This document shows, piece by piece, positions 47,679 through 64,000 of a stretch of DNA of 64,000 bases. The DNA lies in the NCBI RefSeq assembly GCF_009707465.1, contig NZ_CP046120.1:1517501-1581500 (forward strand), given 5' to 3'. Every line of letters starts with the position of its first letter. Positions within the stretch are counted from its first letter, which is position 1. The translations under genes were made by a program, and so were the position numbers. The notes beneath the pieces were generated by a model. The model saw nothing but the letters and a program-made list of their open reading frames with translations, was not told the origin of the DNA and searched no databases. This stretch comes from Novosphingobium sp. Gsoil 351. Its GTDB lineage: Bacteria > Pseudomonadota > Alphaproteobacteria > Sphingomonadales > Sphingomonadaceae.

Positions 47679-47717
47679 TTGACAGCCACCGGGCAAACTG
47701 AAAATTTGTCCGGACAT
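47679..47717 (+). promoter_or_regulatory. promoter with TTGTCCGGACA operator ahead of the methyltransferase
   Basis: TTGACA (47679-47684) is a consensus -35 box; 17 bases later the A/T-rich AAATTT falls at the -10 position. The palindrome TGTCCGGACA (47707-47716) overlaps this -10/+1 zone. The 15-base AAATTTGTCCGGACA here is identical to the minus-strand sequence at 56174-56188. The TnGT-N4-ACnA form fits FadR-type GntR repressors, although no GntR gene is in the window. Confidence 0.7.
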
Positions 47718-47734
47718 TTCGAATGGAATCGCCC

Positions 47735-48931
47735 ATGGCCGCCGAAGTTCCCCCGCCTTACACTGCGCTTACCAAGCACCCGATGCTGCCCGAAGTCGGC
47801 CACGACGAGGCGGCGCGGTTCAACTTCCTAGCCAATTTCAATCGCCACCTTTCGGGCGCCTTGGGCGCGGGCAACCGGATTGCGTACGAGAGCCGGGTTC
47901 TCCCCGCGTTCCGCGCCGAACACGGCCGCGATCCGGAGCATCGCTACGAAATCCGCGAGGCGATGGCGCGCGATCCGTGGCATCGGATGTGGTCGGCAGC
48001 CAAGCGCAATTCGATGGAGATGCGCCAGCACAATGGCCGCCAGATCGTCTTGCGCCAGCTCGACCGGCTCGACGCGATGGCGCGCCAGTTCAACGAGCAT
48101 TCGGGCCAGCTCGAGCTCGATCCCGGGGTGGAGCATCCGTTCTACCAGACCGCGGTCGACATCCATTGCCAGCCCGGCGGCTACGACGGCGAGGAACGCC
48201 CGGGCGACGTCTCGGCCGGCGCCAACTACGATGTCGGCATCTTCGCGACGACCGGCGGACAGCTCGGCGGGCTCAACGACGGCGGTGGGCAGGCGGTCGC
48301 GGCGTGGGTCCGGAAGGAACGGCCCGACTGGCAACCGCGCCGCATCCTCGATGTCGGGGCGACCGTCGGCCACAACGCGGTCCCGATCGCGCAGGCGTTT
48401 CCGGACGCCGAAGTCATCGCCATCGACACCGCCGGAGCCTCGCTGCGCTATGGCGCGGCGCGTGCGGCGGGGCTGGGGGTGCGCAACATCCGCTTCGTCG
48501 AAGCCAATGGCGAGGATCTGTCGCGCTGGCCCGACGGCCATTTCGACTGGGTCCAGACGACGATGTTCCTCCATGAACTGTCGGCCAAGGCGATGCCGCG
48601 CCTGCTCAAGGAGTGCCACCGCGTGCTCGCCCCCGGAGGGCTGATCTTCCATATCGAGCAGCCGCAGTATTCCGCCGCGATGCCGCTGTACGAACAGTTC
48701 ATGCGCGACTGGGACGCGTTCAACAACAATGAGCCATTCTGGACCGCGATGCATGCGCAAGACCTGAAGCAAGTGATGGCCGAGGCCGGGTTCCCCCTGG
48801 AGAACCAGTTCGTGGTCGGGGTGCGGGCGGTGGTGGATCGCGATATCTTTCCCGATGCGCCGGCGGCCGAGGAAGAGGACTACGGCCGGTCGGCGGTGTG
48901 GAACGCCTATGGCGCGTGGAAGGCCGCATGA
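47735..48931 (+). CDS. class I SAM-dependent methyltransferase
   Basis: 398 residues. The N-terminal about 200 residues have no recognised domain (start MAAEVPPPYTALTKHPML, later GGQLGGLNDGGGQAVAAW). The C-terminal part is a Methyltransf_11-type fold with ILDVGATVGHNAVPIAQAFP (motif I), VIAIDTAG and HRVLAPGGLIFHIEQPQ. The substrate is unknown; the presence in a catabolic island suggests a small-molecule target. Start taken at ATG 47735 with GGAA seven bases upstream; ATG 47723 would add four residues. First gene behind the 47679 promoter. Confidence 0.82.
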   Translation: MAAEVPPPYTALTKHPMLPEVGHDEAARFNFLANFNRHLSGALGAGNRIAYESRVLPAFRAEHGRDPEHRYEIREAMARDPWHRMWSAAKRNSMEMRQHNGRQIVLRQLDRLDAMARQFNEHSGQLELDPGVEHPFYQTAVDIHCQPGGYDGEERPGDVSAGANYDVGIFATTGGQLGGLNDGGGQAVAAWVRKERPDWQPRRILDVGATVGHNAVPIAQAFPDAEVIAIDTAGASLRYGAARAAGLGVRNIRFVEANGEDLSRWPDGHFDWVQTTMFLHELSAKAMPRLLKECHRVLAPGGLIFHIEQPQYSAAMPLYEQFMRDWDAFNNNEPFWTAMHAQDLKQVMAEAGFPLENQFVVGVRAVVDRDIFPDAPAAEEEDYGRSAVWNAYGAWKAA

Positions 48932-49296
48932 GCGAAGTCGAAGAACCGCTCGACTGGATCGCTCGGGCGGGCAAGCGCGCCAAAGGCCGCCGTCCCGAAT
49001 ACTTCGACGACCCCGCCGTCGACCGCCTGGTGTCGATGGTCCTTGCGCTGGTCGGCGAGGTATCGGTGCTGCGCGAGCGGCTCGACACGGTCGAGCGCCT
49101 GCTCGACGCCAAGGGTACGATCGCGCGCGAGGATATCGAGCGCTACGCGCCCGATCGCGCCGCGGGCGAGGAACGCGGGCTGGCGACCAAGGCCTACATC
49201 GCGCGGGTCATGCGCGGCCTTCAGCAAGAGCTGGAAGCGATGCAGAACCCCGATCCGCCGATCATGGAATGGGTCGAGCGGTTGGCGAAGGAATAG
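48928..49296 (+). CDS. small helical protein of unknown function
   Basis: 122 residues; not recognised. It is predicted mostly helical, with a coiled-coil-like stretch in the middle (LVGEVSVLRERLDTVERLLD, about 42-61), then REDIERYAPDRAAGEERGLA and a second amphipathic region. No signal or membrane segment. The ATG at 48928 overlaps the methyltransferase stop (ATGA), so it is probably a partner of that enzyme or an unrelated gene tied to it by co-transcription. Confidence 0.75.
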   Translation: MSEVEEPLDWIARAGKRAKGRRPEYFDDPAVDRLVSMVLALVGEVSVLRERLDTVERLLDAKGTIAREDIERYAPDRAAGEERGLATKAYIARVMRGLQQELEAMQNPDPPIMEWVERLAKE

Positions 49297-49301: not shown

Positions 49302-49880
49302 CTACTTCAGCAACTGGTTCATCTCGATCAGCACGCCGTCGGGATCGAAGAAGTTGCAGCCCTTGACCCGGATCGGCGGCGCGCCGTCGCGGCCGGGATA
49401 TTCCTGCATCCGCGGTTCCGCGGTCGGCGTCACCCCCGGCACCGTCTTCGCCGCGGCGCAGCGCCCGTCGACGTCGTCGGTGTTCATTACGATCACCACT
49501 CCGCCCGGCCCCATCCGCCGGGGATACGGTCCCGGATCGGCCAGCGGCGGAGCGATCCATTGCATCAGGCCGATCCAGCCGATGAACGGATCGTTGGCGT
49601 TGAGCAGCACCAGCCGCGCCTTCGCCCCCGGCACACCGGCGGGTAGCGCCACGCCCGAGGTTTCGACCACGGTATCGTAGTTGACCTTCATCCCGACCAC
49701 GTCGCGATAAAGACGCAGGCTGTTCTCCATGTCGCGGACGATGATCGTCGTGCGGCGGACGTCGGTGGGCAGGCGCGCCGCGGGCGCGGCGACACCGGGC
49801 GAGGATGTCGCGGCTTGCGGGGGCGGCGCGGCGCCGGCGCAGGCCGACACGATCAGGGCCAGGACGGCAATGCGCTTCAT
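49302..49880 (-). CDS. VOC (glyoxalase-fold) protein with lipoprotein signal
   Basis: 192 residues. The first ~20 residues (MKRIAVLALIVSACAG) form a lipoprotein signal with lipobox VSAC (Cys14), so the protein should be exported and anchored. The rest is a VOC beta-alpha-beta-beta-beta domain pair: RRTTIIVRDMENSLRLYRDVVGMKVNY and NFFDPDGVLIEMNQL, where the terminal Glu is a typical metal ligand. Function unknown. It overlaps the CoA-transferase by 4 bp (ATGA). Confidence 0.83.
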   Translation of the reverse strand: MKRIAVLALIVSACAGAAPPPQAATSSPGVAAPAARLPTDVRRTTIIVRDMENSLRLYRDVVGMKVNYDTVVETSGVALPAGVPGAKARLVLLNANDPFIGWIGLMQWIAPPLADPGPYPRRMGPGGVVIVMNTDDVDGRCAAAKTVPGVTPTAEPRMQEYPGRDGAPPIRVKGCNFFDPDGVLIEMNQLLK

Positions 49881-51058
49881 CGGCTTTCCTCCACCGCGCC
49901 ATCGGCGATCAATTGCGCGATCCGGGCCTCGTCGTAGCCCAGTCCCGCCAGCACCGTGCGGGCGTCGGCGCCGGGTGTCGGGAGCGCGGCGCCGCCGCCA
50001 GGGCGTTTGCCGCCCATCTCGAGCGGGATCGTCGGCAGGCGGGTTTCGCGCCCGTCGTCGAGCGTGACCGGCTCGAGGCCCCCAGCGGCCAGATGCGGGT
50101 CGTCGAACAGGTCTTCGGGCTTGCCGATGGGGGCGAACGGCATGCCGGTCCCGTCGAGCCGGGCGATCACCTCGGCGCGGGTCATCCCGGCGATCAGCGC
50201 GCGGATTGGCGGCAGGATGCGCTCTCGCGCCAGCACGCGGCTGTTGTTGGCGCGGATCGACTGGTCCGCCCAAAGCTCGTCGAGCCCGAACAGAGCGCAG
50301 AACTTTTCCCACAGCGCGTCGGTGACCACGCCGATGAACACCGGCTCGTCGCGGGTCTCGAATACGTCATAGATCGCCCAGGCGCTGACCCGGGCGGGCA
50401 TCGGCGCAGCCGGCTTTCCGGTCACCGCGAACTGCGCCATGTGCTGGCCGACGAGATAGGCGGTGGTCTCGAACAGGCTGGCGACGACCTTCTGGCCGCG
50501 CCCGGTGCGGTGGCGCTCCTCGAGCGCGGCGAGGATCCCGATCGCGCCGAACATGCCGCCGGTGACGTCGATCACGCTGGCGCCCGCGCGCAAGGGCCGG
50601 CCCGGCGGTCCGGTCATATAGGCGAGGCCGCCCATCATCTGCGCGACCTCGTCGAGCGCGGTGCGCGCCTCGTAGGGACCGGGCAGGAACCCCTTCTCCG
50701 AGCAATAGACCAGCCGCGGATTGGCTTCGGCGAGCACCTCGTAGCCAAGCCCCAGGCGGTCGAGCGCGCCGGGGCGGAAGTTTTCGACCAGCACGTCCGC
50801 CGCGGCGCACAGATCGCGCGCCACCGTCAAACCTCCAGTCGACTTGAGGTCGAGGCAGATCGACGCTTTTCCGCGGTTGTACATCGGAAAATAGCCCGAT
50901 CCGGAGCCGAGCAGGCGGCGGGTCTGATCGCCGCCGTTCGGTTCGACCCGGACGACTTGGGCGCCCAGCCCGGCGAGGATATGGCCGACCGTCGGCCCCA
51001 TCACCATGTGGGTGAATTCGACCACCCTGATGCCGGCCAGAGGCGTAGGACTCGTCAT
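49877..51058 (-). CDS. CaiB/BaiF family (class III) CoA-transferase
   Basis: 393 residues. GIRVVEFTHMVMGPTVGHILAGLGA, the LVENFRPGALDRLGLGY motif and the catalytic Asp136 in ALDEVAQMMGGLAYMTG are family hallmarks. Such enzymes swap CoA between carboxylic acids, for instance succinyl-CoA and malate, citramalate or itaconate. The gene is coupled by ATGA overlap to the HMG-CoA-lyase-like gene upstream, so the likely job is to activate the acid that the lyase then cleaves. Substrate unproven. Confidence 0.88.
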   Translation of the reverse strand: MTSPTPLAGIRVVEFTHMVMGPTVGHILAGLGAQVVRVEPNGGDQTRRLLGSGSGYFPMYNRGKASICLDLKSTGGLTVARDLCAAADVLVENFRPGALDRLGLGYEVLAEANPRLVYCSEKGFLPGPYEARTALDEVAQMMGGLAYMTGPPGRPLRAGASVIDVTGGMFGAIGILAALEERHRTGRGQKVVASLFETTAYLVGQHMAQFAVTGKPAAPMPARVSAWAIYDVFETRDEPVFIGVVTDALWEKFCALFGLDELWADQSIRANNSRVLARERILPPIRALIAGMTRAEVIARLDGTGMPFAPIGKPEDLFDDPHLAAGGLEPVTLDDGRETRLPTIPLEMGGKRPGGGAALPTPGADARTVLAGLGYDEARIAQLIADGAVEESR

Positions 51059-51973
51059 CGGCTGGCCCTTTCCGCATAATCCAGCATCGGCCCAGCCTCG
51101 GGAGTAAATCCGTAGAGCGGCTCACCGGGCAGCGCCTCGGCGAGGATCACACGCACCGCGAGCAGCTTTTCCAGATCGATCCCCGTGTCATAGCCCATGG
51201 CGTTGAGCATCAGCACGAGGTCTTCGGTGACGATGTTGCCCGAGGCGCCCGGCGCGTAGGGACAGCCCCCCAGCCCGCCGAGCGAGGCATCGAGCGTGGT
51301 GATCCCCCTCGTCGAGCCCGGCCAGCGCGTTGGCGAGGCCCAGGCCACGGGTGTTGTGGAGGTGCAGCGTGGTCAGCTTTTCGCCGACCGCCCCGCGTAC
51401 CGCGCGCACCAGCCGCCGGACCTGCGCCGGATCGGCGTAGCCGGTGGTGTCCGACAGGCTGAACTCGTCCGCTCCCGCCTCGGCGGCGGCGGCGGCGAGG
51501 CGAACCACCTGGGTCTCGGCCACCGCGCCTTCGATGGTGCAGCCGAACGCGGTCGACAGCCCGACGGCGAAGGGCTTGCCCGCAGCGTGGGCGATGGCCG
51601 CCGCCTCGCGGATCTCGGCGAGCATCGCCGGGTGATCCTTGCGCACGTTCTTGATCGAGTGGGTCTCGCTCATCGAGAACGGAATGCTCATCGCATCGAC
51701 CCCGGCCTCGACGGCCCGCGCCGCGCCCCTGGCGTTGGGCACCAGCGTCACGACGTTGAGGCCGGGAATGGTTTTGGCGAAGGCGACCAGTTCCGCCGTA
51801 TCGGCCATCTGCGGCAGCAGCGCGGGCGGAACGAAGCTGCCCACCTCGATCTCGCGCACCCCGGCCGCTGCCTCGGCGGCGATCCACGCTTTCTTCGCCT
51901 CGAGCGGCATCACCCGATCGATCGACTGCAACCCGTCGCGCGGGCCGACTTCGGAGACGAGGATGCGGGTCAT
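51055..51973 (-). pseudogene. hydroxymethylglutaryl-CoA lyase-like enzyme, frameshifted
   Basis: TIM-barrel lyase that cleaves a 3-hydroxy-3-methyl-acyl-CoA to acetyl-CoA and a keto acid. From ATG 51973 the frame reads ILVSEVGPRDGLQSIDRVMP, SFVPPALLPQM, PNARGAARAVEAG, FGCTIEGAV and HLHNTRGLGLANALAGLD, then breaks. The continuation ITTLDASLGGLGGCPYAPG, which contains the catalytic Cys loop, is in another frame. One extra base in the C run at 51303-51307 (plus strand) accounts for it. Repaired length is about 305 residues. Its substrate may be HMG-CoA or a related citramalyl-type CoA ester. Confidence 0.87.
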
Positions 51974-52274: not shown

Positions 52275-52868
52275 TCATGGATAGACCCACGGCCTGTTTG
52301 CGCGGTCCTGCGCCAGCCAGGCCTCGTAGGCTGGCCGCTGCTTGAGGGTCAGGGCGATGGCGTCGAGCCCTTCGACAAGCATGGCCTTGGCTTCGGCGTC
52401 GATCGAAAAGGTGTGACGCGTATCGCCGTCCATCACGACCTGTTCGGGCAGATCGACGGTGACCGTGCGCCCGGCCAGGCTCTCGACCGCGTCGCGATCC
52501 AGTTCGACCGGCAGCAGCCCGTTGCGGATGCAGTTGTTGCGAAAGATGGGCGCGAAGCTTGCCGCAACGATGCAAGCGATACCCCATTCCACAAGCGCCC
52601 ACACCGCGTGCTCGCGGCTCGAGCCACAGCCGAAGTTGGCGCCGCCGAGCAGGATTTGGGCGCTTTTATAGGCGGGACGGTTGAGCACGAACGCCGGATC
52701 GGGCGTCCGCGCGTCGGCATCGAGGTACCGCCAAGGGGCGAACAGTCCGTCGGCCAGACCGGTGCGTCCGGTGCTCCGCATCTCGCGGCTGGGGATGATC
52801 GCGTCGGTATCGACGTTGTCGCGCAGCAGCGGCGCGGCGACCGAGGTGAGCGTGACGAACGGGTTCAT
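52275..52868 (-). CDS. LeuD-like small subunit of an aconitase-family hydro-lyase
   Basis: 197 residues. LLRDNVDTDAIIPSREM and the swivelling-domain motif GGANFGCGSSREHAVWAL are as in 3-isopropylmalate dehydratase small subunits. Start ATG 52868 overlaps the large-subunit stop (ATGA). With the large subunit it would interconvert a substituted malate and maleate. The housekeeping leucine enzyme is not excluded, but no other leu genes are here and the neighbours are catabolic, so a paralogue for another substrate is more likely. Confidence 0.85.
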   Translation of the reverse strand: MNPFVTLTSVAAPLLRDNVDTDAIIPSREMRSTGRTGLADGLFAPWRYLDADARTPDPAFVLNRPAYKSAQILLGGANFGCGSSREHAVWALVEWGIACIVAASFAPIFRNNCIRNGLLPVELDRDAVESLAGRTVTVDLPEQVVMDGDTRHTFSIDAEAKAMLVEGLDAIALTLKQRPAYEAWLAQDRANRPWVYP

Positions 52869-54256
52869 GCCGCGACTGTCCCCGACGGGATTTGAGCGAG
52901 CAGCGGACGCGGATCGGCGATGCACCCGGCGATGGCGCTGGCGGCGACCGTCTCGGGGCTGGCGATATGGGTGCGGATGCCCGGACCCTGGCGGCCCTCG
53001 AAATTGCGGTTGGTCGAGGAGATCACCCGGCTCCCCGCCGCGAATCCCTCGCCGCCCGCATAAAAGCACAGCGAGCATCCGCTCATCCGCCATTCGAACC
53101 CGGCGGCCTCGAACACCTTGTCCAGCCCCTCGGCCTCGGCGGCGCGGCGCACCGCCATGCTACCCGGCACGACCAGCGCCTTGGCGATCGACGGGGCGAT
53201 CCGCTTGCCGCGCAGGACGGCGGCGGCGCGGCGCAAGTCGGATAGCCGCGCGTTGGTGCAGCTGCCGATGAACGCGGCGTCGAGCGGGGTTCCGAGCAGG
53301 CGCGCGCCCGGCTCCAGCCCGATGTAGTCGTGAACGCGCGCCGGACCCCGCGGCACCGCCGCTTCGACCGGAACCGCGTGCTCGGGGCTGGTCCCCCAAC
53401 TCACCATCGGCGCGATGGCCGCGGCATCCATCGCGATCTCCGCGTCGAATCTCGCGCCCGGATCGCTGGACAGCGTCGCCCAGTATCGATCGTCGAACCC
53501 TGCCGGAGCATGCCGCCGCCCGGCCAGGTACGCGAAAGTCTTGGCATCGGGCGCGATCAGCGCGGTCATCGCGCTGAACTCGGTCGCCATGTTGCACAGC
53601 GTCATCCGCGCTTCCATGTCGAGCGCGCCGACCGCCTCGCCCGCGAACTCGATCGCCCGGCCCGCGCCGCCGCCCGCGCCGTGCCGCGCGATCAGCGCCA
53701 GCGCCATGTCCTTGGCGGTGACCCCGGGCGCGAGCGTGCCATCGAACCTCACCCGCATCGTGCCCGGCCGCTCCAGCCGCAGCATCCCCGTGGCCATCGC
53801 ATGCTCGGCCTCGCTGGTGCCGATCCCCCAGGCCAGCGCGCCGAACGCCCCTTGCGTGCACGTGTGGCTATCGGGCGCGACCAGGGTGACCCCTGGCAGC
53901 ACGATCCCGAGTTCGGGCGAGATCACATGGACGATGCCCTGGTCGCGATCGCCGACATCGATCAGCGTGATCCCGGCGGCGCGGCAGGCCTCGCGGGTCT
54001 CGGTGATGAACGCCTGCCCGCCAGGCATCAGCGTCGCGTCTCCCCGCCCCGGGCGGGTATCCACGATATGGTCCATCACCGCGAACACCCGCGCGGGATC
54101 GGTCACCGCGCGCCCCGCCGCCGCCATGCTGTTCAGCGCCGCCGCGCCGGTGCGCTCATGCAGGAACACCCGGTCGATCGCCACGAGGTCCGCCCCGCCC
54201 GGTGTCCCGGCAACCCGGTGCGCGTCCCAAATCTTGGCGAAGAGAGTGCGGGGCAA
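52865..54256 (-). CDS. LeuC-like large subunit of an aconitase-family hydro-lyase
   Basis: 463 residues. The three 4Fe-4S ligands are visible: Cys333 (FIGSCTNARLSDL), Cys394 and Cys397 (SGCSLC). DSHTCTQGAFGALAWGIGTSEAEH and SSTNRNFEGRQG are typical of LeuC. The usual PGCSMCLAMN around the last two Cys reads SGCSLCFYAGGE, a change next to the cluster that may reflect a different substrate. Start is TTG 54256 without a clear ribosome site, 21 bp after the DUF3598-like gene, so it likely relies on the same transcript. Confidence 0.87.
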   Translation of the reverse strand: MPRTLFAKIWDAHRVAGTPGGADLVAIDRVFLHERTGAAALNSMAAAGRAVTDPARVFAVMDHIVDTRPGRGDATLMPGGQAFITETREACRAAGITLIDVGDRDQGIVHVISPELGIVLPGVTLVAPDSHTCTQGAFGALAWGIGTSEAEHAMATGMLRLERPGTMRVRFDGTLAPGVTAKDMALALIARHGAGGGAGRAIEFAGEAVGALDMEARMTLCNMATEFSAMTALIAPDAKTFAYLAGRRHAPAGFDDRYWATLSSDPGARFDAEIAMDAAAIAPMVSWGTSPEHAVPVEAAVPRGPARVHDYIGLEPGARLLGTPLDAAFIGSCTNARLSDLRRAAAVLRGKRIAPSIAKALVVPGSMAVRRAAEAEGLDKVFEAAGFEWRMSGCSLCFYAGGEGFAAGSRVISSTNRNFEGRQGPGIRTHIASPETVAASAIAGCIADPRPLLAQIPSGTVAA

Positions 54257-54277: not shown

Positions 54278-54826
54278 TTAGCCGCCGAAGCCCGGCCCGC
54301 CACCGAACGGGACTTGCCGTCCCTCGCTAGCCGCAGCCTGCATCTCGGCGTCGACGCCGCGCCAGTCCTTCGTCACGAAACGCTCCTGGATCGCGGTGCG
54401 CGTCTCCAGCATGCCGTTTCTGATCCAGTGCCAGGTGCGGCAGCGGTTCTGGCCGTCATCGGAGATCTGGATCTGTTCGTACAGATACAGCGTGGGGTCC
54501 CCGGTGCGCTGCCAATAGAGCATCATCGTGCGGTTGAATTCGTCGAGCGGAACTTCCGCCGCCCAGCCCTGGATGAGCTCGTTGTCCCACCAGATCCGGC
54601 CATCGCGGTAGGTTGCCGGAAAGTCGCGAATTTCGGTGCGGCCATCGGGCCAGCGATAGTGATTGGTCTGATGATACGGGAAATCGCCGCCGTCGGGCAC
54701 CCGGCAGAGCAGGCGGCTGGCGTGCTCGTCGACCTTCTCGTTGGCGGCGTTGAAATAGCTGTAGACCCCGTCCCACACGCCCTCATGGCGTGCGAGCAGG
54801 GGCATTTCGCGGCGAATATCGGTCAT
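54278..54826 (-). CDS. DUF3598-like (calycin-fold) protein, copy 1
   Basis: 182 residues, no signal peptide. ARHEGVWDGVYSYFNAANEK at the N-terminus, CRVPDGGDFPYHQTNHYRWP, DGRTEIRDFPATYRDGRIWW and NRCRTWHWIRNGML make up a Trp- and Tyr-rich beta-barrel pattern like the DUF3598/lipocalin group. It is clearly homologous to the protein at 60241 (HEG-W-G-Y, C--PD-G---Y-Q-N, W-DGRT, SRTWEW/CRTWHW in the same order). Possibly a ligand carrier or a non-canonical enzyme. Start ATG 54826 overlaps the hydrolase stop. Confidence 0.78.
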   Translation of the reverse strand: MTDIRREMPLLARHEGVWDGVYSYFNAANEKVDEHASRLLCRVPDGGDFPYHQTNHYRWPDGRTEIRDFPATYRDGRIWWDNELIQGWAAEVPLDEFNRTMMLYWQRTGDPTLYLYEQIQISDDGQNRCRTWHWIRNGMLETRTAIQERFVTKDWRGVDAEMQAAASEGRQVPFGGGPGFGG

Positions 54827-56163: not shown

Positions 56164-56173
56164 GATTGCCAAG

Positions 56174-56185: not shown

Positions 56186-56249
56186 ATTTCACTCGACAAG
56201 CCACTACGCGGGATTATCATCGGGGTCAAAGCGGAATCGAGGGCTTGCA

Positions 56250-56930
56250 ATGCAACTGATCGGCACGCGGATGATCAGCGACGGCAAGACCGCGCGCCAG
56301 TTGTTCGAGGAGGTGATGGCCAACCCGGCGCGCAGGAAGTTCGGGTTCGGCAGCAAGCTGGCGATCGTCAACGTCGATTTCCAGCAGGCCTATACCCGGA
56401 TCGACAAGTTCGCGACCGCTTACGAGACCGATCCGCGACAGATCGAATACGTCAACACGGTCAGCCGGCTGGCGCGCGAACGCGGCATGCCGGTGGTGTG
56501 GACCCACGTCGCCTACAAGGCCGACGCGGGCGATGCCGGGGTCTGGGGCACGCGGACCGATACCCCCGACAGCTTGCAGAACATCAAGGTCGACAGCGAG
56601 CGTCACGCTTACGACGAGCGCTGCGAGATTCACCCCGACGACCTGCAATACACCAAGCGCATGCCGTCCGCGTTCTTCGAGACCCCGCTGGCGAGCTATC
56701 TGGTGTGGCACAAGGTCGATACCGTGGTGGTCACCGGCGGCAGCACGTCGGGCTGCGTGCGCGCCACCGCGGTCGATGCGCTGAGCCATGGCTATCGCAC
56801 GATCGTCCCGATCGAGACCTGCGCCGACAAGCACGAGAGCTATCACTTCGCCAACCTCACCGATCTCCAGCTCAAGTACGCGGATGTCGAGCCCGTCCAG
56901 ACGGTGATCGATTGGCTGCAAGCGCGGTGA
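56250..56930 (+). CDS. isochorismatase-fold cysteine amidase
   Basis: 226 residues. Catalytic triad visible: Asp43 (VNVDFQQAY), Lys136 (YTKRMPSAFF) and Cys169 (GGSTSGCVRATAVDALSHGY). The TSGCVRATAVDA form is that of N-carbamoylsarcosine amidase, maleamate amidase and ureidoacrylate amidase rather than true isochorismatases. It would hydrolyse a linear amide or carbamoyl compound, plausibly the product of the ring-opening enzymes encoded next. Start ATG 56250 with GAGGG seven bases upstream. Confidence 0.87.
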   Translation: MQLIGTRMISDGKTARQLFEEVMANPARRKFGFGSKLAIVNVDFQQAYTRIDKFATAYETDPRQIEYVNTVSRLARERGMPVVWTHVAYKADAGDAGVWGTRTDTPDSLQNIKVDSERHAYDERCEIHPDDLQYTKRMPSAFFETPLASYLVWHKVDTVVVTGGSTSGCVRATAVDALSHGYRTIVPIETCADKHESYHFANLTDLQLKYADVEPVQTVIDWLQAR

Positions 56931-57024: not shown

Positions 57025-57906
57025 ATGAATGAGGGTGCCGCCGATCCCGGCCTCTACGCCTACGCGCCCTATCGCGGCCGGCCCCGGATCGTCTGGCCCG
57101 GCGGCAAGAGCGTGGCCGTGTGGGTCGCGCCCAACCTGGAATACTACGAGATCGACCCGCCCGCGCACCCCCAGCGCAAGGCCTGGGCGCGCCCGCATCC
57201 GGACGTGGTCGGCTATGCGCACCGCGATCATTCCAACCGCGTCTCGCACTGGCGGATGGCCGAGGTCATGTCGAAGCACGGCTTTCCCGGCTCGGTCAGC
57301 CTCTCGGTAGCGCTGTGCCAGCACCATCCCGAGGTCGTGGCCGACGCCAACGCGCGGGGCTGGGAGTTCTTCAGCCACGGCATTTACAACACCCGCTACG
57401 CGTATGGGATGGACGAGGCCCAGGAACGCAGCATCATCGAGGACTCGATCCGCACGGTCGAGGACGCGACCGGCCAGCGCATCCGCGGCTGGCTCGCCCC
57501 GGCGCTGACCCACACCCCGCGTACGCTCGACCTGATCGCCGACTACGGTCTCGACTACACCTGCGACCTCTATCACGACGACCAGGTCCAGGAGGTGAAA
57601 GTCGCCAAGGGCCGGCTCGCCTCGATCCCCTACAGCCTCGAGGTCAACGACCACTACGGCTTCTTCGTCTACAACATGAGCGGTCGCGAATACGCCGACA
57701 CGCTGGTCCGCCAGTACGAGCGGCTGGCCGCGGAGGGGGAGCAGTCCGGCACGGTGATGTGCATTCCCTTGCACGCCTACCTGATCGGCCAGCCGCACCG
57801 GATCGGGCCGTTCGAGGAGGCGCTGCGCCACATTGCGGCGGACGGCCGCGCCTGGATCGCGCGCGCGGGCGAGATCGTCGATGCGTGGCGGGCACAGCAG
57901 CCATGA
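57025..57906 (+). CDS. polysaccharide-deacetylase-fold protein, allantoinase/cyclic-imidase-like (first)
   Basis: 293 residues of the NodB/CE4 superfamily but of the PuuE allantoinase/imidase branch: instead of the TFDDG metal site it has AVWVAPNLEYYEIDPP, followed by DHSNRVSHWRMAEVMSKHGF and WEFFSHGIYNTRY (His). No signal peptide, so cytosolic and not a cell-wall enzyme. Family members open cyclic amides (allantoin, imides). Start ATG 57025. Its stop overlaps the second copy (ATGA). Confidence 0.85.
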   Translation: MNEGAADPGLYAYAPYRGRPRIVWPGGKSVAVWVAPNLEYYEIDPPAHPQRKAWARPHPDVVGYAHRDHSNRVSHWRMAEVMSKHGFPGSVSLSVALCQHHPEVVADANARGWEFFSHGIYNTRYAYGMDEAQERSIIEDSIRTVEDATGQRIRGWLAPALTHTPRTLDLIADYGLDYTCDLYHDDQVQEVKVAKGRLASIPYSLEVNDHYGFFVYNMSGREYADTLVRQYERLAAEGEQSGTVMCIPLHAYLIGQPHRIGPFEEALRHIAADGRAWIARAGEIVDAWRAQQP

Positions 57907-58814
57907 CCCTCGACCCCGCCTATCTCGAATACCCCAAACGCCGCGAGGGCTACGACCACGATCTCTACCCGTGGTCGAACCTCCACCACCGCCCGCCCGT
58001 CACCTGGCCCCGGGGTTCGGTCGCGGTGTGGGTCTGCGTCAGCCTCGAGTGGTTCCCGATCACCCCCGCCGACGCCCCGTTCCGCGCGCCGGGGCACATG
58101 CAGACCGCCTATCCCGACTACCGCCACTACACCGCGCGCGATTACGGCAACCGGATCGGCGCGTGGCGCTTTCTCGACGCCTTCGCCCGGGCGGGCGTGA
58201 CCGCCAGCTTCGCCACCAACGCCGCGGTCGCCGAACGCTATCCCGAACTGCTGCGCGCCGTGCTCGACGGCGGGCACGAGGTCGTCGCCCATTCGACCGA
58301 CATGAACGGCACGATCGACAGCACGCTGGCCGAGGCCGACGAGCGCGCGCTGATCGGCGACGCCGTGGCCCGCCTCAAGGCCTGCGGGGTCGAACCCACC
58401 GGCTGGCTCTCGCTCGCCCGCTCGCAAAGCTGGCGCACGCTCGACCTGCTGCACGAAGCGGGGCTGACCTACTGCTGCGACTGGGTAAACGACGAGCTGC
58501 CCTATCGTTTTACGAATGGCCTCATCGACCTCCCGCTCAACCACGAACTGTCCGACCGCCAGATGATCGCGGTCCAGCAGCAATCCGCCGACGTGTGGGC
58601 GCAGAGCCTGGAGGACGCGTTCGACTGGCTGGCCGCCGAAGCCGCGCGGGAAGGCGGGGGACGGATGCTCCCGATCCACGTCACACCCTACATCATGGGC
58701 CTGCCCTACCGGATCGCGGCCTTCGAGCGCCTGCTCGAGCGCCTGACCGCAAGGCCCGAAGCGTGGTTCGCGCGCGCAGACGAGATCGTGGCGAGCTGGG
58801 CGGCGCAGGCGTGA
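57903..58814 (+). CDS. polysaccharide-deacetylase-fold protein, allantoinase/cyclic-imidase-like (second)
   Basis: 303 residues, homologous to its neighbour but diverged. VAVWVCVSLEWFPITPADAP replaces the first metal site, DYGNRIGAWRFLDAFARAGV the next helix, and HEVVAHSTDMNG the HGxxN region, with THSTDMN-type substitution (HST instead of HG). RMLPIHVTPYIMGLPYRI near the end matches LHAYLIGQPHRI in the first copy. A heteromeric pair or two successive substrates are possible. Start ATG 57903 overlaps the first gene; stop overlaps the next GTG. Confidence 0.83.
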   Translation: MTLDPAYLEYPKRREGYDHDLYPWSNLHHRPPVTWPRGSVAVWVCVSLEWFPITPADAPFRAPGHMQTAYPDYRHYTARDYGNRIGAWRFLDAFARAGVTASFATNAAVAERYPELLRAVLDGGHEVVAHSTDMNGTIDSTLAEADERALIGDAVARLKACGVEPTGWLSLARSQSWRTLDLLHEAGLTYCCDWVNDELPYRFTNGLIDLPLNHELSDRQMIAVQQQSADVWAQSLEDAFDWLAAEAAREGGGRMLPIHVTPYIMGLPYRIAAFERLLERLTARPEAWFARADEIVASWAAQA

Positions 58815-60244
58815 AAGCCACCAATCCGCGCACCGGCGAGTGCGACCATGAATTCGCCGAGAGCACGCCGGAGGACGTCGCATCCGTCTCCGCCCGGCTG
58901 CGCGCCATGCAGCCCGAATGGGAGGCGCGCGGGGCCGCCGGCCGCGGCGCCATCCTGTGCGCATTCGCCGACGCGCTAGAGCGCCATGCGGGAGCCATCG
59001 TCGCCGCGCTGGCGATCGACACCGGGCGCAGCGCGATCGCCCGGGTCGAGCTCGACACCATTGTCCGCCGCCTGCGCGGCTGGTCGGCGCGCGCGGCCGA
59101 ACTGTTCGCCGCCCTTCCCGGTGAGGCGACGCAATCGGCCACCCCGGGCATCCTGATCGAGCCGCGCTGGTCGGCCTATCCCCTGTTCGGCGCGATCGCG
59201 CCGTGGAACTTTCCGCTTTTGCTCAGCCATATCGACGCGATCCCCGCGCTCGCGGCGGGCTGCGCCGCGCTGGTCAAGCCGAGCGAAGTGACGCCGCGCT
59301 TCGTCGCTCCGCTGAGCGCCGCGCTGGCCGAAGTGCCGGAGTTGCCGCTGGCCTATGTCCTGGGCGGCGCCGGGACCGGCGAGGCGCTGGTCGCCCACGC
59401 CGACTACGTGTGCTTCACCGGATCGACCGCCACCGGGCGAAAGGTCGCCCTTGCCGCCGCGGCGCGCCTGATCCCGGTCAATCTCGAGCTCGGCGGAAAG
59501 GACCCGCTGATCGTCGCGGCCTCCGCCGACCCGGTGGACGCGGCGCGGATCGCCTTGCGCGCCAGCGTGGTCGCCACCGGGCAGGCCTGCCAGTCGATCG
59601 AGCGGGTCTATGTCGCCCGCGCCATCGCCGAGCCGTTCCTCGCCGAGCTGGTCCGCGCGGCCAACGCGGTCGAGTTGGCCTGGCCCGATCCGGGCCGCGG
59701 CCACCTCGGCCCGTTCATCTTTCCCGCCCAGGCCGACAAGGTCGCCGCCCAGATCGCCGACGCGCGAAGCCAGGGCGCGCAAGTCCTGGCCGGCGGCGAG
59801 GTGGAAACGCTGGGAGGCGGCAAGTACTTGCGCCCCACGGTGCTGACCGGGGTGACCGCGGACATGGCGGTGATGCGCGACGAGACGTTCGGGCCGGTGA
59901 TCCCGGTGATCCCGTTCGACACCATCGACGAGGCGGTGGCGCTGGCCAACGCGGGCGAATTCGGCCTTTCCGCAGCGGTCGTCGCCGGAACCGTCGAGGA
60001 GGCCGCCGAGATCGGCGCGCAGCTCGATGCCGGGGCGATCTCGCTCCAGGATGGCGCGCTGACCAGCATGGTCGGCGACGCCACCAACCATTCGCGCAAG
60101 GGTTCCGGACTGGGGCCGAGCCGGATGGGCGACGAGGGCCTGCTGCGCTTCCTCCGCCGCCAGGCACTGCTCCGCCAGACCGGCGCGCCCGCGCCGATCG
60201 CCGCTTTTGCCGAGGATCATCGTCGAGAGGAGCATCATCGATGA
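58811..60244 (+). CDS. NAD(P)-dependent aldehyde dehydrogenase
   Basis: 477 residues. GAIAPWNFPLLLSHIDAIPALAAG, FTGSTATGRKVALAAA, catalytic Glu226 (LELGGKD) and Cys260 (TGQACQSIERVYV), and RDETFGPVIPVIPF are all present. Oxidises an unidentified aldehyde, most like succinate-semialdehyde-type enzymes. Start GTG 58811 overlaps the upstream stop (GTGA); the stop overlaps the following ATG, so it is in the middle of a coupled run 57025-60717. Confidence 0.88.
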   Translation: MKATNPRTGECDHEFAESTPEDVASVSARLRAMQPEWEARGAAGRGAILCAFADALERHAGAIVAALAIDTGRSAIARVELDTIVRRLRGWSARAAELFAALPGEATQSATPGILIEPRWSAYPLFGAIAPWNFPLLLSHIDAIPALAAGCAALVKPSEVTPRFVAPLSAALAEVPELPLAYVLGGAGTGEALVAHADYVCFTGSTATGRKVALAAAARLIPVNLELGGKDPLIVAASADPVDAARIALRASVVATGQACQSIERVYVARAIAEPFLAELVRAANAVELAWPDPGRGHLGPFIFPAQADKVAAQIADARSQGAQVLAGGEVETLGGGKYLRPTVLTGVTADMAVMRDETFGPVIPVIPFDTIDEAVALANAGEFGLSAAVVAGTVEEAAEIGAQLDAGAISLQDGALTSMVGDATNHSRKGSGLGPSRMGDEGLLRFLRRQALLRQTGAPAPIAAFAEDHRREEHHR

Positions 60245-60717
60245 GCAACCGCGCGCAACTCGCTGCTGCCATGCCCGCGATGCTGCTACACGAGGGCGAC
60301 TGGGAGGGCTGGTACCGCCATTTCGACGGCGACGGCGCGCTGCTCGATGCGCACCGGGTCAAGACCTGGTGCGAGTTTCCGGACCACGGCGAATGGCACT
60401 ACATCCAGCACAACGAGCTGATCTGGGATGATGGCCGGACCGCGTTCTACGAGTTCGGCGGCCGCCTCGAAGGCCAGCAGCTCGTCTGGCGCACCGATCG
60501 ATTCGCGGGCTACGGCTGGCAGACCCGCGAAGATGTGCTGATGCTCCGGCTCGAACGCCAGGACGTCGCCGACGCCTATTATATCGAGATGATCGCGATC
60601 TCTGCCGACCGCCTCAGCCGCTCGCGGACGTGGGAATGGTTCCAGGGCGGGCGCCCATGGAAATGGACGCTATGCAACGAACGCAAGATCGCACCCACCG
60701 GACCCGAAGGAGCCTGA
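60241..60717 (+). CDS. DUF3598-like (calycin-fold) protein, copy 2
   Basis: 158 residues. LLHEGDWEGWYRHFDGDGAL, CEFPDHGEWHYIQHNELIWD, DGRTAFYEFGGRLEGQQLVW and SRTWEWFQGGRPWKWTLCNE align in order with the protein at 54278. Cytosolic; very rich in Trp. It is encoded between an aldehyde dehydrogenase and an MDR oxidoreductase, with ATGA overlap to the former. Possibly a binding protein for a hydrophobic intermediate; unproven. Confidence 0.78.
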   Translation: MSNRAQLAAAMPAMLLHEGDWEGWYRHFDGDGALLDAHRVKTWCEFPDHGEWHYIQHNELIWDDGRTAFYEFGGRLEGQQLVWRTDRFAGYGWQTREDVLMLRLERQDVADAYYIEMIAISADRLSRSRTWEWFQGGRPWKWTLCNERKIAPTGPEGA

Positions 60718-60718: not shown

Positions 60719-61741
60719 ATGCATTGCTGGGAAATCGGACCGCGCGGCGGGATCGACAGCTTGCGGCAGTCCGAACGCCCCGAACCGGCGCCCGGACCCG
60801 GCGAGGTTGTGGTGCGCGTTGCCGCCGCCGGGCTCAACTATCGCGACCTGATGGTGCTTGCCGGGCAATATGGCAGCGGCCTGCCGGATACGCGGATTCC
60901 GTTGTCGGACGGGGTGGGCACGGTCGCTGCTCTGGGCTCTGGAGTGTCCGGGGTGAGCCTGGGCCAGCGGGTGATCGCGCCGAACTTCACCGGCTGGCGA
61001 GACGGGGCGTTCGGACCGGGGCTGTTCGGGCACGATCTGGGGGTGACCGCCGATGGCTGGCTGGCCGACACCATCGTCTTGCCCGCAACCTCGCTGATCG
61101 CGGTGCCCGACAGCGTCTCGGACGCGACCGCCGCCACGCTTGCGGTGGTCGGGGGGACGGTGTGGCACGCAATGGTGGCGTTCGGAGAGGCCGGCCCCGG
61201 CAAGCTGGTGCTGGCACAGGGCACCGGCGGCGTCTCGCTGTTCGCGCTGCAACTCGGCAAGGCGCTTGGCGCGGAGTTCGCGATCACCTCGTCGCGTGCG
61301 GACAAGCTGGAGAGATGCCGCGAGCTGGGCGCCGATCATGCGATCGATTACCGCGCCCGGCCCGATTGGGCGGCGGCGCTGCTCGAGGCCACCGGCGGGC
61401 GCGGCGCCGATGTGGTGGTCGACACGCTCGGCTTTCCCGCGTTGGCCGAGACCGTCACGGCCTGCGCGGTCGAAGCGCGGATCGGGACGCTGGGCGCGCT
61501 ATCCGGCTCGCCTGCGGCGACCGCTTCGGCCAGCCAAGGCGCGATCATCGGCAAGAACCTGACGATCAAGGGCATCGCCTCGGGCAGCCGGGCGATGCTC
61601 GCCGCCGCGCTCGACGTGGTCGCAAGGCACAAGATCGAGATGGTCGTGGATCGCCGCTTTGCCTTCGCCGAAGCTCCCGCCGCCTATCGCCATCTCGAAA
61701 GCGGGGCGCATATCGGCAAGGTACTGATCGAAATCGTCTAG
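60719..61741 (+). CDS. MDR-superfamily NAD(P)-dependent oxidoreductase (quinone-reductase-like)
   Basis: 340 residues. Begins MHCWEIGPRGGIDSLRQSER, then AAGLNYRDLMVLAGQYG, the GroES-like domain, and the Rossmann loop VLAQGTGGVSLFALQLGKALGA with ITSSRADKLERCRELGAD. No clear Cys/His set for the structural zinc is seen, so a zinc-independent quinone-oxidoreductase type is favoured. It would oxidise an alcohol or reduce an enone. One base after the DUF3598-like stop; convergent with the next gene, sharing CTAG. Confidence 0.87.
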   Translation: MHCWEIGPRGGIDSLRQSERPEPAPGPGEVVVRVAAAGLNYRDLMVLAGQYGSGLPDTRIPLSDGVGTVAALGSGVSGVSLGQRVIAPNFTGWRDGAFGPGLFGHDLGVTADGWLADTIVLPATSLIAVPDSVSDATAATLAVVGGTVWHAMVAFGEAGPGKLVLAQGTGGVSLFALQLGKALGAEFAITSSRADKLERCRELGADHAIDYRARPDWAAALLEATGGRGADVVVDTLGFPALAETVTACAVEARIGTLGALSGSPAATASASQGAIIGKNLTIKGIASGSRAMLAAALDVVARHKIEMVVDRRFAFAEAPAAYRHLESGAHIGKVLIEIV

Positions 61742-62463
61742 CGCGCGAGCTCGACCAGCTCGTAGCGGTTCATCATGTACCCGTCGATTGCGGCGTAGAC
61801 GAGGATGCAGTCGTCATCGGCGGTGGCCCAGATGTCATAATCAGGGTGCGGCGTGCCTCCCATGCCGTCGTCGCTCTCGTCGACAAAGCGGAAGTGGCGG
61901 CAGGGGAAGGTGCCCGCGGCGACCGTCTTCTCCTCCTCACCGACGTATTCGAGCGCAATGCTTACTTCGGCGATCAGCGGCGGAGTGGCGCCGCGGTGAT
62001 CGGGCGACGGCAGGAAGCAGCGCATGGTCCGCCGATGCGGCCCGCGCGACAAGTCGAGGCGCTTGGCGAGAAAGGCGTCGCCGACCACCGGATGGGTGCC
62101 GAAGCCGTCGAACGGGCCTTGGGTGCCCACCCGCTGCGAGACGCGGCCGATCGAAGGGCCGAAGCTTTCGCACTCGATCACGCCCCCGGCGGCATCGTGG
62201 CGCATCCAGCCCGAGCCCATGAAAGAGTCGCCGACGGTCAGCTGAACTTGAAGGTGCTGCGGGATCATCCCAGGACCGAGATGGTACACCACGTCACGCA
62301 GGACTTTGGGATCGGGCTCCTCGATCTCGCAGGTCGCGCGCATCACCGTGCTGCCGTCGCGATGATGGGTGAAGCGGAACCACTCGCGCCCGCGCTCGGC
62401 GCCCTCCATCCCGGGTTTGGCCGAGGTATAGCGGATCATGCCGGTGACGCTGCGGTGCTCCAT
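61738..62463 (-). CDS. protein of unknown function (beta-rich)
   Basis: 241 residues, no signal peptide. Not recognised with confidence. Segments such as WFRFTHHRDGSTVMRATCEIEE, VVYHLGPGMIPQHLQVQLTV and a C-terminal KTVAAGTFPCRHFRFVDESD suggest an antiparallel beta-barrel; the AGTF-ARxFRF phrase recalls DUF3108-like proteins. It starts where the nitrilase-fold gene stops (TGATG), so the two are coupled, and its stop overlaps the convergent oxidoreductase by 4 bp. Confidence 0.75.
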   Translation of the reverse strand: MEHRSVTGMIRYTSAKPGMEGAERGREWFRFTHHRDGSTVMRATCEIEEPDPKVLRDVVYHLGPGMIPQHLQVQLTVGDSFMGSGWMRHDAAGGVIECESFGPSIGRVSQRVGTQGPFDGFGTHPVVGDAFLAKRLDLSRGPHRRTMRCFLPSPDHRGATPPLIAEVSIALEYVGEEEKTVAAGTFPCRHFRFVDESDDGMGGTPHPDYDIWATADDDCILVYAAIDGYMMNRYELVELAR

Positions 62464-63515
62464 CAGATCGCTCCGGCTTTGGCGAGTGTGTCGATCACTG
62501 CCTGCTGCATGCGGTGGAAATCGCCGCGCTCAGGGACTTGCGCCTCGCCATCTCGAAGCATCGCGTTGCCCGCCTGGCCATTCGCCGCGGTATAGACGGG
62601 CGCGAACAGCGAGGGACGCTGGCGGGCGAGGCTGTTGGTCATCGCCGGGGTGCGGCGGGTGGCGCGCAGGGCTTCGATGTCGAGCGTTGCGAACGCGGTG
62701 TAGGTCTCGCCCGACAGTGATTGGGCGAGGATCTTGCCATCGGGGCCGACGACCTGGCTGTTGCCGTCGGCCGAGGCGAGCGGCATCACGGTGCCGGAAA
62801 TGCCCGCGGTGTTGGCCGAAACCACGTAGGCCATGCTCTCCCACGCCCGCGCCCGCTTGGCGACGTCCTTGGCGGTGGCGAGCGGCGAGCCGATCTCGCT
62901 CGAGGAATGGCACAGCACTTCTGCCCCGCGAAAAGCGAAGGCGCGCGCGATCTCGGGATAGAGGATTTCCTCGCTGGCCACGCAGGCGAGATTGCCGATT
63001 TCGGTGCGCGCCACCGGGAACACTCCGTCGATTCCGTAGTGGTCGAGATAGGCGTCCCAGATATCGTGCGGACTCGGCGCGAACATCGACAACAGCCGGC
63101 GATAGCGCAGCACAACGCTGCCCGATGGCGCGACGATGAAGCTGGTCTGGAAATAAAAGCCGGGAAAGTGCCGGTCGCTTTCGTAGGCGTTGCCCGCCAG
63201 GAACAGGCCCAGCCGCTGTGCCACCCCGCCAAGGGCGGCGTATTCCGGCCCATCGGCGGCGAAGCCCACCCGCTCGGCGAATTCGGCGATGCCGACGCGT
63301 CCGGGATAGCTGGTGAACAGGTACTCGGGAAGCACCGCCAGCTTGACCGGGCGTCCGGCGTATTGTTCGATGAAGATCGCCGCGGTGCGGATCGCGCCCT
63401 CGATCTCGCCGATGTGGCTCAGGATTTGCGCCCGCGCGGCGGCCGTATCGGCGCAACGCTCGGTGGAGCGCGCGGTAAGTTGCATCGCGACGGCGGCGTA
63501 GGGCGCAACGTTCAA
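62463..63515 (-). CDS. nitrilase-superfamily (carbon-nitrogen hydrolase) protein
   Basis: 350 residues. Family landmarks: APYAAVAMQLTAR (first strand), Glu64 in LAVLPEYLFTSYPG, LRYRRLLSMFAPSPHD and Cys178 in IGNLACVASEEILYPEIAR. At the place of the usual catalytic Lys (YRK) there is Arg140 (YRR), so activity may be altered. A substrate amide or nitrile is expected if active. Start TTG 63515 is preferred over the ATG at residue 11 because the first strand begins before that ATG and the TTG overlaps the upstream stop (TTGA). Confidence 0.83.
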   Translation of the reverse strand: MNVAPYAAVAMQLTARSTERCADTAAARAQILSHIGEIEGAIRTAAIFIEQYAGRPVKLAVLPEYLFTSYPGRVGIAEFAERVGFAADGPEYAALGGVAQRLGLFLAGNAYESDRHFPGFYFQTSFIVAPSGSVVLRYRRLLSMFAPSPHDIWDAYLDHYGIDGVFPVARTEIGNLACVASEEILYPEIARAFAFRGAEVLCHSSSEIGSPLATAKDVAKRARAWESMAYVVSANTAGISGTVMPLASADGNSQVVGPDGKILAQSLSGETYTAFATLDIEALRATRRTPAMTNSLARQRPSLFAPVYTAANGQAGNAMLRDGEAQVPERGDFHRMQQAVIDTLAKAGAI

Positions 63516-64000
63516 AGGGCGAGGCTTCCCGGGTTCATCAAGCCGCGCGGATCGAGCTGGCGCTTGACTGTCTCTAGCAACGCCCACGCGGCGGGATCGT
63601 GGCTGGCCTTGAGCGGATAGGTCCGCGCGATCTGGAGATGGATCGCGCCGAGCGTGGCAAACACCTCTATCACTCCCTTGCGCAGGCGATCGACCAGCGC
63701 GGCGCTGTCGGGATTCGCCGGAAAGCCCTTGAGCTTGGCCAGATGTCCCGCCTCGACCGCATGGCGATGCAGCGGGTTGAGCGCGTCGGGCCAGTAGAAG
63801 ACCGGCTCGATCAGGCACGCCTGCGGACTGACGGCAGCCAGCATCGCCCCGGCCTGCACGCCCAGCCCCTCCATCTCGGCGCGATGCGCGGCGAACAGCG
63901 CCTGGATCGCGTCCCACCCTTCGACCAGCCGCGAGTGCGGCAGAAAACCGTGCACCGGCACCCAGCGCTCTCCCGCCGGACCGACCATCGAGTTGACTGG
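63512..64000 (-). CDS. FAD-linked oxidase C-terminal part (vanillyl-alcohol oxidase/4-cresol dehydrogenase-like), partial
   Basis: The last about 162 codons of a gene running off the right edge. NSMVGPAGERWVPVHGFLPHSR, the ALNPLHRHAVEAGHLAKLKG region and the closing YPLKASHDPAAWALLETVKRQLDPRGLMNPGSL are the C-terminal domain of VAO-type flavoproteins, the DPxGxxNPG ending being diagnostic. Such enzymes oxidise phenolic side chains, hydroxy acids or amines. It is upstream of and overlaps the nitrilase-fold gene, so the island continues beyond the window. Confidence 0.82.
   Translation of the reverse strand, partial: PVNSMVGPAGERWVPVHGFLPHSRLVEGWDAIQALFAAHRAEMEGLGVQAGAMLAAVSPQACLIEPVFYWPDALNPLHRHAVEAGHLAKLKGFPANPDSAALVDRLRKGVIEVFATLGAIHLQIARTYPLKASHDPAAWALLETVKRQLDPRGLMNPGSLAL

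What the first reader, a model, noticed from the sequence alone, without database searches (positions are those of the whole stretch)
47679..64000. Possible undescribed catabolic island for a cyclic imide or amide-bearing compound
Seen: an unusual set of about eighteen genes, many overlapping by 1-4 bp, with two allantoinase/imidase-like CE4 proteins, an isochorismatase-fold amidase, an alpha/beta hydrolase, a nitrilase-fold protein, an aldehyde dehydrogenase, an MDR oxidoreductase, an FAD oxidase, and a LeuC/LeuD hydro-lyase, CaiB CoA-transferase and HMG-CoA-lyase-like enzyme. Known: imidases and allantoinase open cyclic amides; maleamate-type amidases release ammonia; LeuCD-type enzymes hydrate substituted maleates; CaiB enzymes activate malate-type acids; the lyase gives acetyl-CoA. 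Inference: substituted imide to half-amide to substituted maleate to substituted malate to its CoA ester to acetyl-CoA plus a keto acid. An alkylated maleimide, as from tetrapyrrole breakdown, would fit but is a guess.
Basis: partly seen in the sequence, partly recalled or inferred. Interest (0 to 1): 0.75.

Follow-up and report, generated by a model that had tools for sequence, protein, structure and literature searches.

The report
Conserved imide-to-branched-diacid catabolic island
This is a real, widely shared bacterial gene island that probably opens a small nitrogen-containing ring (a cyclic imide), strips off the nitrogen and breaks the remaining branched acid into central metabolites; the natural substrate is unknown, and breakdown products of chlorophyll or heme are an attractive but unproven candidate.

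Summary
The gene set is real and not a chance grouping. Its core trio, an isochorismatase-fold amidase and two CE4 hydrolases (ISO-CE4a-CE4b), is contiguous in 79 of 80 loci kept from a contig scan and in 39 of 39 loci from two other orders. Over 59 genomes of the window's family, one per genus, island-type LeuC and CE4a co-occur: 12 both, 1 CE4a only (67% complete), 0 LeuC only (1 if a 55%-identical LeuC is counted), 46 neither. Island LeuCD is not the presumed housekeeping enzyme. In other orders the trio recurs with three sets that would cleave branched C4 diacids: LeuCD + PrpB-like lyase + fumarate-reductase-like flavoprotein; HMG-CoA-lyase-like + CaiB and/or LeuCD; RipB/RipC-like + CaiB. 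The substrate stays open; in three lyase-type clusters glutaryl-CoA dehydrogenase and a glutarate-CoA-transferase-like gene lie nearby, which would fit hematinic acid. Corrections: related genes run about 25 kb past the window, and the HMG-CoA-lyase-like gene is frame-broken in this assembly. No biochemistry is shown.

The parts
47723..48931 (+). SAM-dependent methyltransferase (MT), 402 aa, about 200 aa N-terminal part of unknown function
   Evidence: Pfam Methyltransf_25, 66.5 bits; in 44 of 80 relatives' loci
48898..49296 (+). small unknown protein travelling with MT (orf132)
   Evidence: no Pfam match; in 43 of 80 loci
49302..49889 (-). VOC/glyoxalase-family protein (start uncertain)
   Evidence: Pfam Glyoxalase, 38.8 bits; in 21 of 80 loci
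49877..51058 (-). CaiB (family III) CoA-transferase
   Evidence: Pfam 353 bits; nearest NCBIfam succinate-glutarate CoA-transferase, 232 bits, below cut-off 750; in 57 of 80 loci
51055..51973 (-). HMG-CoA-lyase-like gene, broken into two frames (51188-51973 and 51055-51348)
   Evidence: in 61 of 80 loci
52275..52868 (-). LeuD-type hydro-lyase small subunit with altered substrate loop
   Evidence: NCBIfam LeuD, 224 bits; loop read, compared; in 60 of 80 loci
52865..54256 (-). LeuC-type hydro-lyase large subunit
   Evidence: NCBIfam NF009116, 624 bits; separate clade; in 61 of 80 loci
54278..54826 (-). LipoA, calycin-fold protein
54823..56250 (-). alpha/beta hydrolase with long C-terminal extension (start uncertain; lies divergent to ISO)
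   Evidence: Pfam; weak haloalkane dehalogenase/epoxide hydrolase matches, best 47 bits; in 53 of 80 loci
56250..56930 (+). ISO, isochorismatase-fold amidase (start by eye)
   Evidence: Pfam 97.5 bits; best solved match N-carbamoylsarcosine amidohydrolase 26st, 109.7 bits; Asp, Lys and Cys that could form the family's triad read by eye in the sequence printed; in 80 of 80 loci
57025..57906 (+). CE4a, CE4-family hydrolase related to PuuE allantoinase
   Evidence: the query of the scan
57903..58814 (+). CE4b, second CE4-family hydrolase
   Evidence: in 79 of 80 loci
58811..60244 (+). aldehyde dehydrogenase
   Evidence: in 46 of 80 loci
60241..60717 (+). LipoB, homologue of LipoA
   Evidence: aligned with LipoA, 29% identity; in 28 of 80 loci
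60719..61741 (+). MDR-type zinc-binding dehydrogenase family protein
   Evidence: in 28 of 80 loci
61738..62463 (-). D3108a, DUF3108-like beta protein
62463..63509 (-). NIT, nitrilase-fold carbon-nitrogen hydrolase (start uncertain)
   Evidence: Pfam 94.8 bits; in 36 of 80 loci
63512..64000 (-). C-terminal part of an FAD-linked oxidase; the gene continues outside the window (515 aa in L006)
   Evidence: in 36 of 80 loci

Best explanation
A catabolic island that releases a small cyclic imide (a substituted maleimide or succinimide) from a larger imported compound and mineralises it. Most likely steps, all inferred from families and gene partnership, none assayed: TonB/MFS uptake; hydrolysis and oxidation of the parent compound (alpha/beta hydrolase, FAD oxidase, aldehyde dehydrogenase, nitrilase-fold enzyme, calycin and DUF3108-like helpers of unknown role); opening of the imide ring by CE4a and/or CE4b to a half-amide; loss of ammonia by ISO to a substituted maleate or succinate; hydration by LeuCD to a 2-substituted malate; activation by CaiB; cleavage by the HMG-CoA-lyase-like enzyme to an acyl-CoA and a 2-oxo acid. 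This is in effect a reverse of the first leucine-biosynthesis steps. Other bacteria appear to do the last part with a PrpB-like lyase or with a RipB/RipC-like route; the window's genome carries genes of all three cleavage types, the HMGL-like gene being frame-broken here.
For: Trio contiguous in 79 of 80 loci (the exception, L061, is a 3.1-kb contig) and in 39 of 39 loci of two other orders. In 58 full-flank loci LeuC, LeuD, CaiB and HMGL are all present in 44. Co-occurrence of island-type LeuC (63% identity or more) and CE4a over 59 genomes, one per genus: 12/1/0/46, Fisher p = 1.2e-11; 1.5e-10 if a 55%-identical LeuC without CE4a (G887) is counted against it; adjacent in 10 of 12, 1.45 Mb apart in G898 and on different contigs in G890. 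Partner replacement in other orders: 8 of 24 loci with PrpB-like lyase, LeuC and flavoprotein; 7 of 24 with HMGL and LeuC and/or CaiB1; 2 of 24 and 10 of 15 with CE4c and RipC-like CitE, of which 2 and 7 also show MaoC, acyl-CoA dehydrogenase and CaiB2. All 22 proteins of the lyase cluster keep K[KR]CGH, recalled to carry the lyases' catalytic Cys. The flavoprotein resembles flavocytochrome c/tricarballylate dehydrogenase, below cut-offs. All 8 lyase-set loci carry TRAP transporter genes, as expected for an anionic substrate (Pfam check of two genes in L115). LeuD loop: SREM or SREI in 58 of 63 LeuD pieces of the 80 loci, ARFM in all 8 lyase-set loci, ARWL in the own presumed housekeeping copy.
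Against: No enzyme here is biochemically characterised and no substrate is known. ISO's best solved relative acts on a ureido group, not an imide-derived amide. 13 of 58 full-flank loci have the trio without LeuC, and 12 of 39 other-order loci fit none of the three sets. The 80 loci are the most similar ones of at least 572, and the 63% limit for island-type LeuC was set after seeing the list. The HMGL-like gene is broken in this assembly. The upstream genes (methyltransferase, FAD oxidase, calycins) are not explained by the imide step.
Confidence: 0.58

Rival explanations
1. The CE4 pair plus ISO is a hydantoinase-carbamoylase-like set: CE4 opens a cyclic ureide to an N-carbamoyl compound and ISO removes the carbamoyl group, so the substrate is a hydantoin or other ureide.
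For: CE4a's best solved matches are PuuE allantoinase and a close relative; ISO's is N-carbamoylsarcosine amidohydrolase. Hydantoinase A/B-type genes lie near the trio in L013 and L176, and in the same 40-kb stretch of L010.
Against: In the compact lyase-type clusters (8 of 24) the trio is joined to genes for dicarboxylate dehydrogenation, hydration and C-C cleavage, which an amino-acid product would not need. CE4a and CE4b score far below the PuuE cut-off.
Confidence: 0.2
2. A composite island: the trio serves one amide compound, while LeuCD/CaiB/HMGL serve an unrelated branched diacid (citramalate or itaconate type) and the two are merely neighbours.
For: The trio occurs without LeuC (13 of 58 loci; several loci), and the 1591-1596 kb genes resemble the itaconate pathway (RipB-like 235 bits, cut-off 340; RipC-like 211 bits, cut-off 375).
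Against: Near-perfect co-occurrence of LeuC and CE4a across genera, including two genomes where they are not adjacent, and repeated pairing of the trio with different diacid-cleaving sets.
Confidence: 0.15
3. LeuCD here is simply a spare copy of the leucine-biosynthesis isomerase.
For: It is annotated as 3-isopropylmalate dehydratase by profile.
Against: Two further LeuC copies in the genome; in the tree the window copy lies in a clade of 81 (support 0.97), while the 2798.6-kb copy groups with 14 LeuC pieces of other family genomes in a clade of 20; changed substrate loop; each of the 12 family genomes with the island copy has another LeuC at 48% identity or more.
Confidence: 0.03

Closest known systems
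Imidase/half-amidase pathway of cyclic imide degradation (recalled; the listings showed no paper on it)
   Same: Ring opening of a cyclic imide to a half-amide, then hydrolysis to a dicarboxylate
   Different: Here the pair is CE4 plus isochorismatase-fold enzymes beside dedicated branched-diacid cleavage genes; substrate and activity untested
PuuE allantoinase (TIGR03212; structures 3cl6, 1z7a)
   Same: Same CE4 subfamily; alignment over residues 68-293
   Different: 110 and 97 bits against a cut-off of 425; tandem pair; partners are not purine genes
Dimethylmaleate hydratase and dimethylmalate lyase of nicotinate-fermenting Eubacterium barkeri (pathway recalled; a 2,3-dimethylmalate lyase structure, 3fa3, appears)
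   Same: LeuCD-family hydratase followed by a PrpB/ICL-family lyase on a branched malate, as in the lyase-type clusters
   Different: The pJE1 lyase tested is nearer to a CPEP-mutase-named protein and PrpB (212 and 160 bits) than to 3fa3 (145 bits); the window's own set uses CaiB+HMGL; imide-opening trio added
Itaconate degradation (RipABC)
   Same: RipB-like hydratase and RipC-like lyase beside CaiB and acyl-CoA dehydrogenase genes downstream of the window
   Different: Scores below cut-offs; linked to CE4c and the trio in other orders

Membership tests
PuuE allantoinase | score above the curated TIGR03212 cut-off | tested here: not met
   109.9 and 96.6 bits, cut-off 424.6
3-isopropylmalate dehydratase (leucine biosynthesis) | LeuC and LeuD profile membership | tested here: inconclusive
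   LeuD 194.6 bits over 116.25; LeuC 494.6 under TIGR00170 cut-off 560.25 but over the NF009116 and NF004016 subfamily cut-offs
3-isopropylmalate dehydratase (leucine biosynthesis) | groups with the genome's presumed housekeeping copy and keeps its substrate loop | tested here: not met
   separate clade; SREM in the window protein versus ARWL. That the 2798.6-kb copy is the housekeeping one is presumed, not tested
HMG-CoA lyase | score above the subfamily cut-off | tested here: not met
   179 bits versus 246 for the 5-prime piece alone; the gene is frame-broken
Succinate-glutarate CoA-transferase (window CaiB) | score above NF052585 cut-off 750 | tested here: not met
   232 bits; the L011 CaiB scores 542, also below
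Glutaryl-CoA dehydrogenase (L011 cluster) | closest relation to solved glutaryl-CoA dehydrogenases | tested here: met
   735 bits to 3gnc and 574 to 1sir; the only such NCBIfam model listed, GlutCoADH_Des, gives 207.6 bits, below its cut-off 470
N-carbamoylsarcosine amidohydrolase | sequence relation to solved members | tested here: inconclusive
   26st 109.7 bits, 1nba 88.6 bits; substrate untested
DUF3598/calycin (LipoA) | calycin beta-barrel fold | tested here: met
DUF3598/calycin (LipoA) | Pfam sequence match | tested here: not met
   no family at E up to 0.001
Itaconate RipB/RipC | scores above curated cut-offs | tested here: not met
   235 versus 340 and 211 versus 375 bits
Imidase | hydrolysis of a cyclic imide | not testable with these tools
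   needs assay

The most novel reading that the evidence does not exclude
The island and its relatives are the terminal part of bacterial tetrapyrrole mineralisation. Chlorophyll, heme or bilin remnants yield hematinic acid, its dihydro form and methyl/ethyl/vinyl maleimides; the CE4-ISO trio opens these imides and the interchangeable diacid sets finish them. In the lyase-type set 3-(2-carboxyethyl)-4-methylmaleimide would give pyruvate plus glutarate, which explains the TRAP transporter, the glutarate-CoA-transferase-like gene and glutaryl-CoA dehydrogenase. The calycins (fold shared with bilin and heme binders, among others) would act on larger pyrrolic intermediates.
Probability: 0.2. Interest if true: 0.87.

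Novelty: new variant of a known kind. Interest (0 to 1): 0.62.

Why it matters
The listings of five searches of the open-licence PubMed Central library showed no paper on this gene set (one search listed only 20 of 770 papers). If the scheme is right, many freshwater, soil and marine sphingomonads, other bacteria and several plasmids carry a modular pathway for cyclic imides with a new use of the leucine-pathway hydratase. If the tetrapyrrole reading is right, it would make the final bacterial fate of chlorophyll and heme rings genetically testable.

Tried and rejected
Rejected: housekeeping LeuCD; chance neighbourhood; PuuE allantoinase proper. Led nowhere: papers on Sphingomonas JE1/pJE1 (no relevant title among 20 listed of 25); imidase with polysaccharide deacetylase (two papers, by title not on this); bacterial use of hematinic acid (none by title among the 13 and 7 listed; one search was uninformative, its 15 listed papers do not hold the term); LipoA against PDB sequences (no match at E up to 1); a close RipC-like copy elsewhere in the order (only the own genome, 1 of 118, at E up to 1e-60, although weaker copies at 53-57% identity lie in L029 and L033). 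The glutarate link was noticed after looking, so its chance estimate (2 of 8 lyase-set genomes with the single-copy dehydrogenase within 12 kb of the trio, p about 0.0009) is post hoc. In the other six genomes that gene lies about 110-125 kb away (two) or on another contig (four, distance unknown). Against hematinic acid for the window's own set: its LeuD loop has Glu where the presumed housekeeping copy has Trp, which does not suggest a carboxylated side chain (inference). Among unlabelled gene clusters recurring in 5 or more loci I saw, by eye, no heme- or bilin-specific enzyme. The B. plantarii LeuC falls in a third, small LeuC clade with L120 and L190, so that cluster is not simply the same set moved.
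Full report
What is there. The window is bases 1517501-1581500 of a single-contig 3.8-Mb genome. The genes form divergent runs: leftward CaiB, HMGL-like, LeuD, LeuC, LipoA, alpha/beta hydrolase; rightward ISO, CE4a, CE4b, ALDH, LipoB, MDR; then leftward DUF3108-like, NIT and FAD oxidase. The HMGL-like gene is broken into two frames near 51,305 in this assembly; in the relatives' loci 59 of 61 copies run unbroken and the other two end at a contig end. Related-looking genes continue outside the window to about 1606 kb: the rest of the FAD oxidase, MFS transporter, two TonB receptors, a DUF1838 protein, RipC-like CitE, RipB-like MaoC, acyl-CoA dehydrogenase, two CaiB proteins, MmgE/PrpD, an AMP-ligase, SDR, a third CE4 (CE4c), enoyl-CoA hydratase, VOC and another hydrolase (the MFS, TonB, SDR, second CaiB and enoyl-CoA hydratase labels are read by eye).

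Conservation. In these, ISO is present in 80, CE4b 79, LeuC 61, HMGL 61, LeuD 60, CaiB 57, hydrolase 53, ALDH 46 and LipoA 46; in the 58 with full flanks LeuC is in 45, and all four of LeuC, LeuD, CaiB and HMGL in 44. The kept loci are the most similar ones, so these frequencies hold for close relatives. Two searches of the same 59 genomes (one per genus of the family) gave island-type LeuC (63% identity or more) in 12 and CE4a in 13, with 12 shared; the odd genome is 67% complete. One further genome, G887, has a LeuC of 55% identity that branches at the base of the island clade and no CE4a. Fisher p is 1.2e-11, or 1.5e-10 counting G887 against the link. LeuC and CE4a are adjacent in 10 of the 12.

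Not leucine biosynthesis. The genome has two further LeuC genes, at 3383.6 kb and 2798.6 kb. In a tree of 116 LeuC pieces the window copy falls in a clade of 81 (support 0.97), while both other own copies fall with the presumed housekeeping and lyase-set types in a clade of 31 (support 0.997). The substrate loop of LeuD reads SREM or SREI in 58 of 63 pieces from the 80 loci, ARWL in the 2798.6-kb copy and ARFM in all 8 lyase-set loci. Near the 3383.6-kb copy lie a PrpB-like lyase and a dehydrogenase that resemble those of plasmid pJE1 (72% and 66%).

Partners in other lineages. On plasmids the trio is linked to HMGL, CaiB and LeuCD and, in pJE1 and pTomTYG65b, a second LeuCD plus the lyase. 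A Burkholderia plantarii plasmid has the trio beside LeuCD, the lyase, a fumarate-reductase-like flavoprotein, ETF, glutaryl-CoA dehydrogenase and a CaiB near the succinate-glutarate transferase family. Other plasmids have the trio, or only the CE4 pair, without these genes. In two other orders 24 of 390 and 15 of 250 genomes carry CE4a at E up to 1e-110. All 39 loci have the contiguous trio; 8 of 24 have the lyase set, 7 of 24 HMGL with LeuC and/or CaiB1, and 2 of 24 plus 10 of 15 CE4c with CitE; 12 of 39 fit none. The 8 lyase-set loci all carry TRAP transporter genes, and a regulator family with GntR/UTRA domains in L115 occurs in 33 loci overall. All 22 proteins of the lyase cluster keep K[KR]CGH.

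How it likely works. The constant part would open a ring and remove nitrogen; the variable part would cleave a branched C4 diacid. The simplest joint reading is a substituted cyclic imide: CE4 makes the half-amide, ISO the diacid, LeuCD the substituted malate, and CaiB plus HMGL (window), a lyase, or the RipB/RipC-like route makes the final cut. Every step is inferred from family and partnership; none is assayed.

Verdict.

Noticed in passing
window 51055-51973: The HMGL-like gene is split into two frames although 59 of 61 copies in relatives' loci run unbroken and two are cut by a contig end; assembly error or recent loss.
   Followed up: partly
L111 (own genome 3376-3395 kb), 6147-8957: A second, unlinked LeuCD with a PrpB-like lyase (72% to the pJE1 lyase) lies in the same genome, with an HMGL-like gene and a CaiB about 15 kb further on (L112).
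   Followed up: partly
L008, L009, L010, L011: The trio sits on mobilizable or conjugative plasmids of Sphingomonas, Sphingobium, Acidiphilium and Burkholderia (PLSDB typing), so it could spread horizontally.
   Followed up: no
window 47723-49296: A methyltransferase with a long unknown N-terminal part plus a small partner protein recurs beside the island and in other arrangements (63 copies in 52 loci); role unknown.
   Followed up: no
L115 14306-15744: In genome G050 the LeuC beside the trio is read as two overlapping ORFs; it was left out of the tree for short coverage.
   Followed up: no
window 43454-46507: A run of two enoyl-CoA-hydratase-like genes and an acyl-CoA dehydrogenase lies left of the island, looking like ordinary branched-chain degradation (hydratase labels read by eye; dehydrogenase).
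   Followed up: no
loci, e.g. L085 11984-13234: An FAD monooxygenase-like protein recurs in 9 loci and small DUF1330-like proteins in 10 loci of the set (labels by eye).
   Followed up: no
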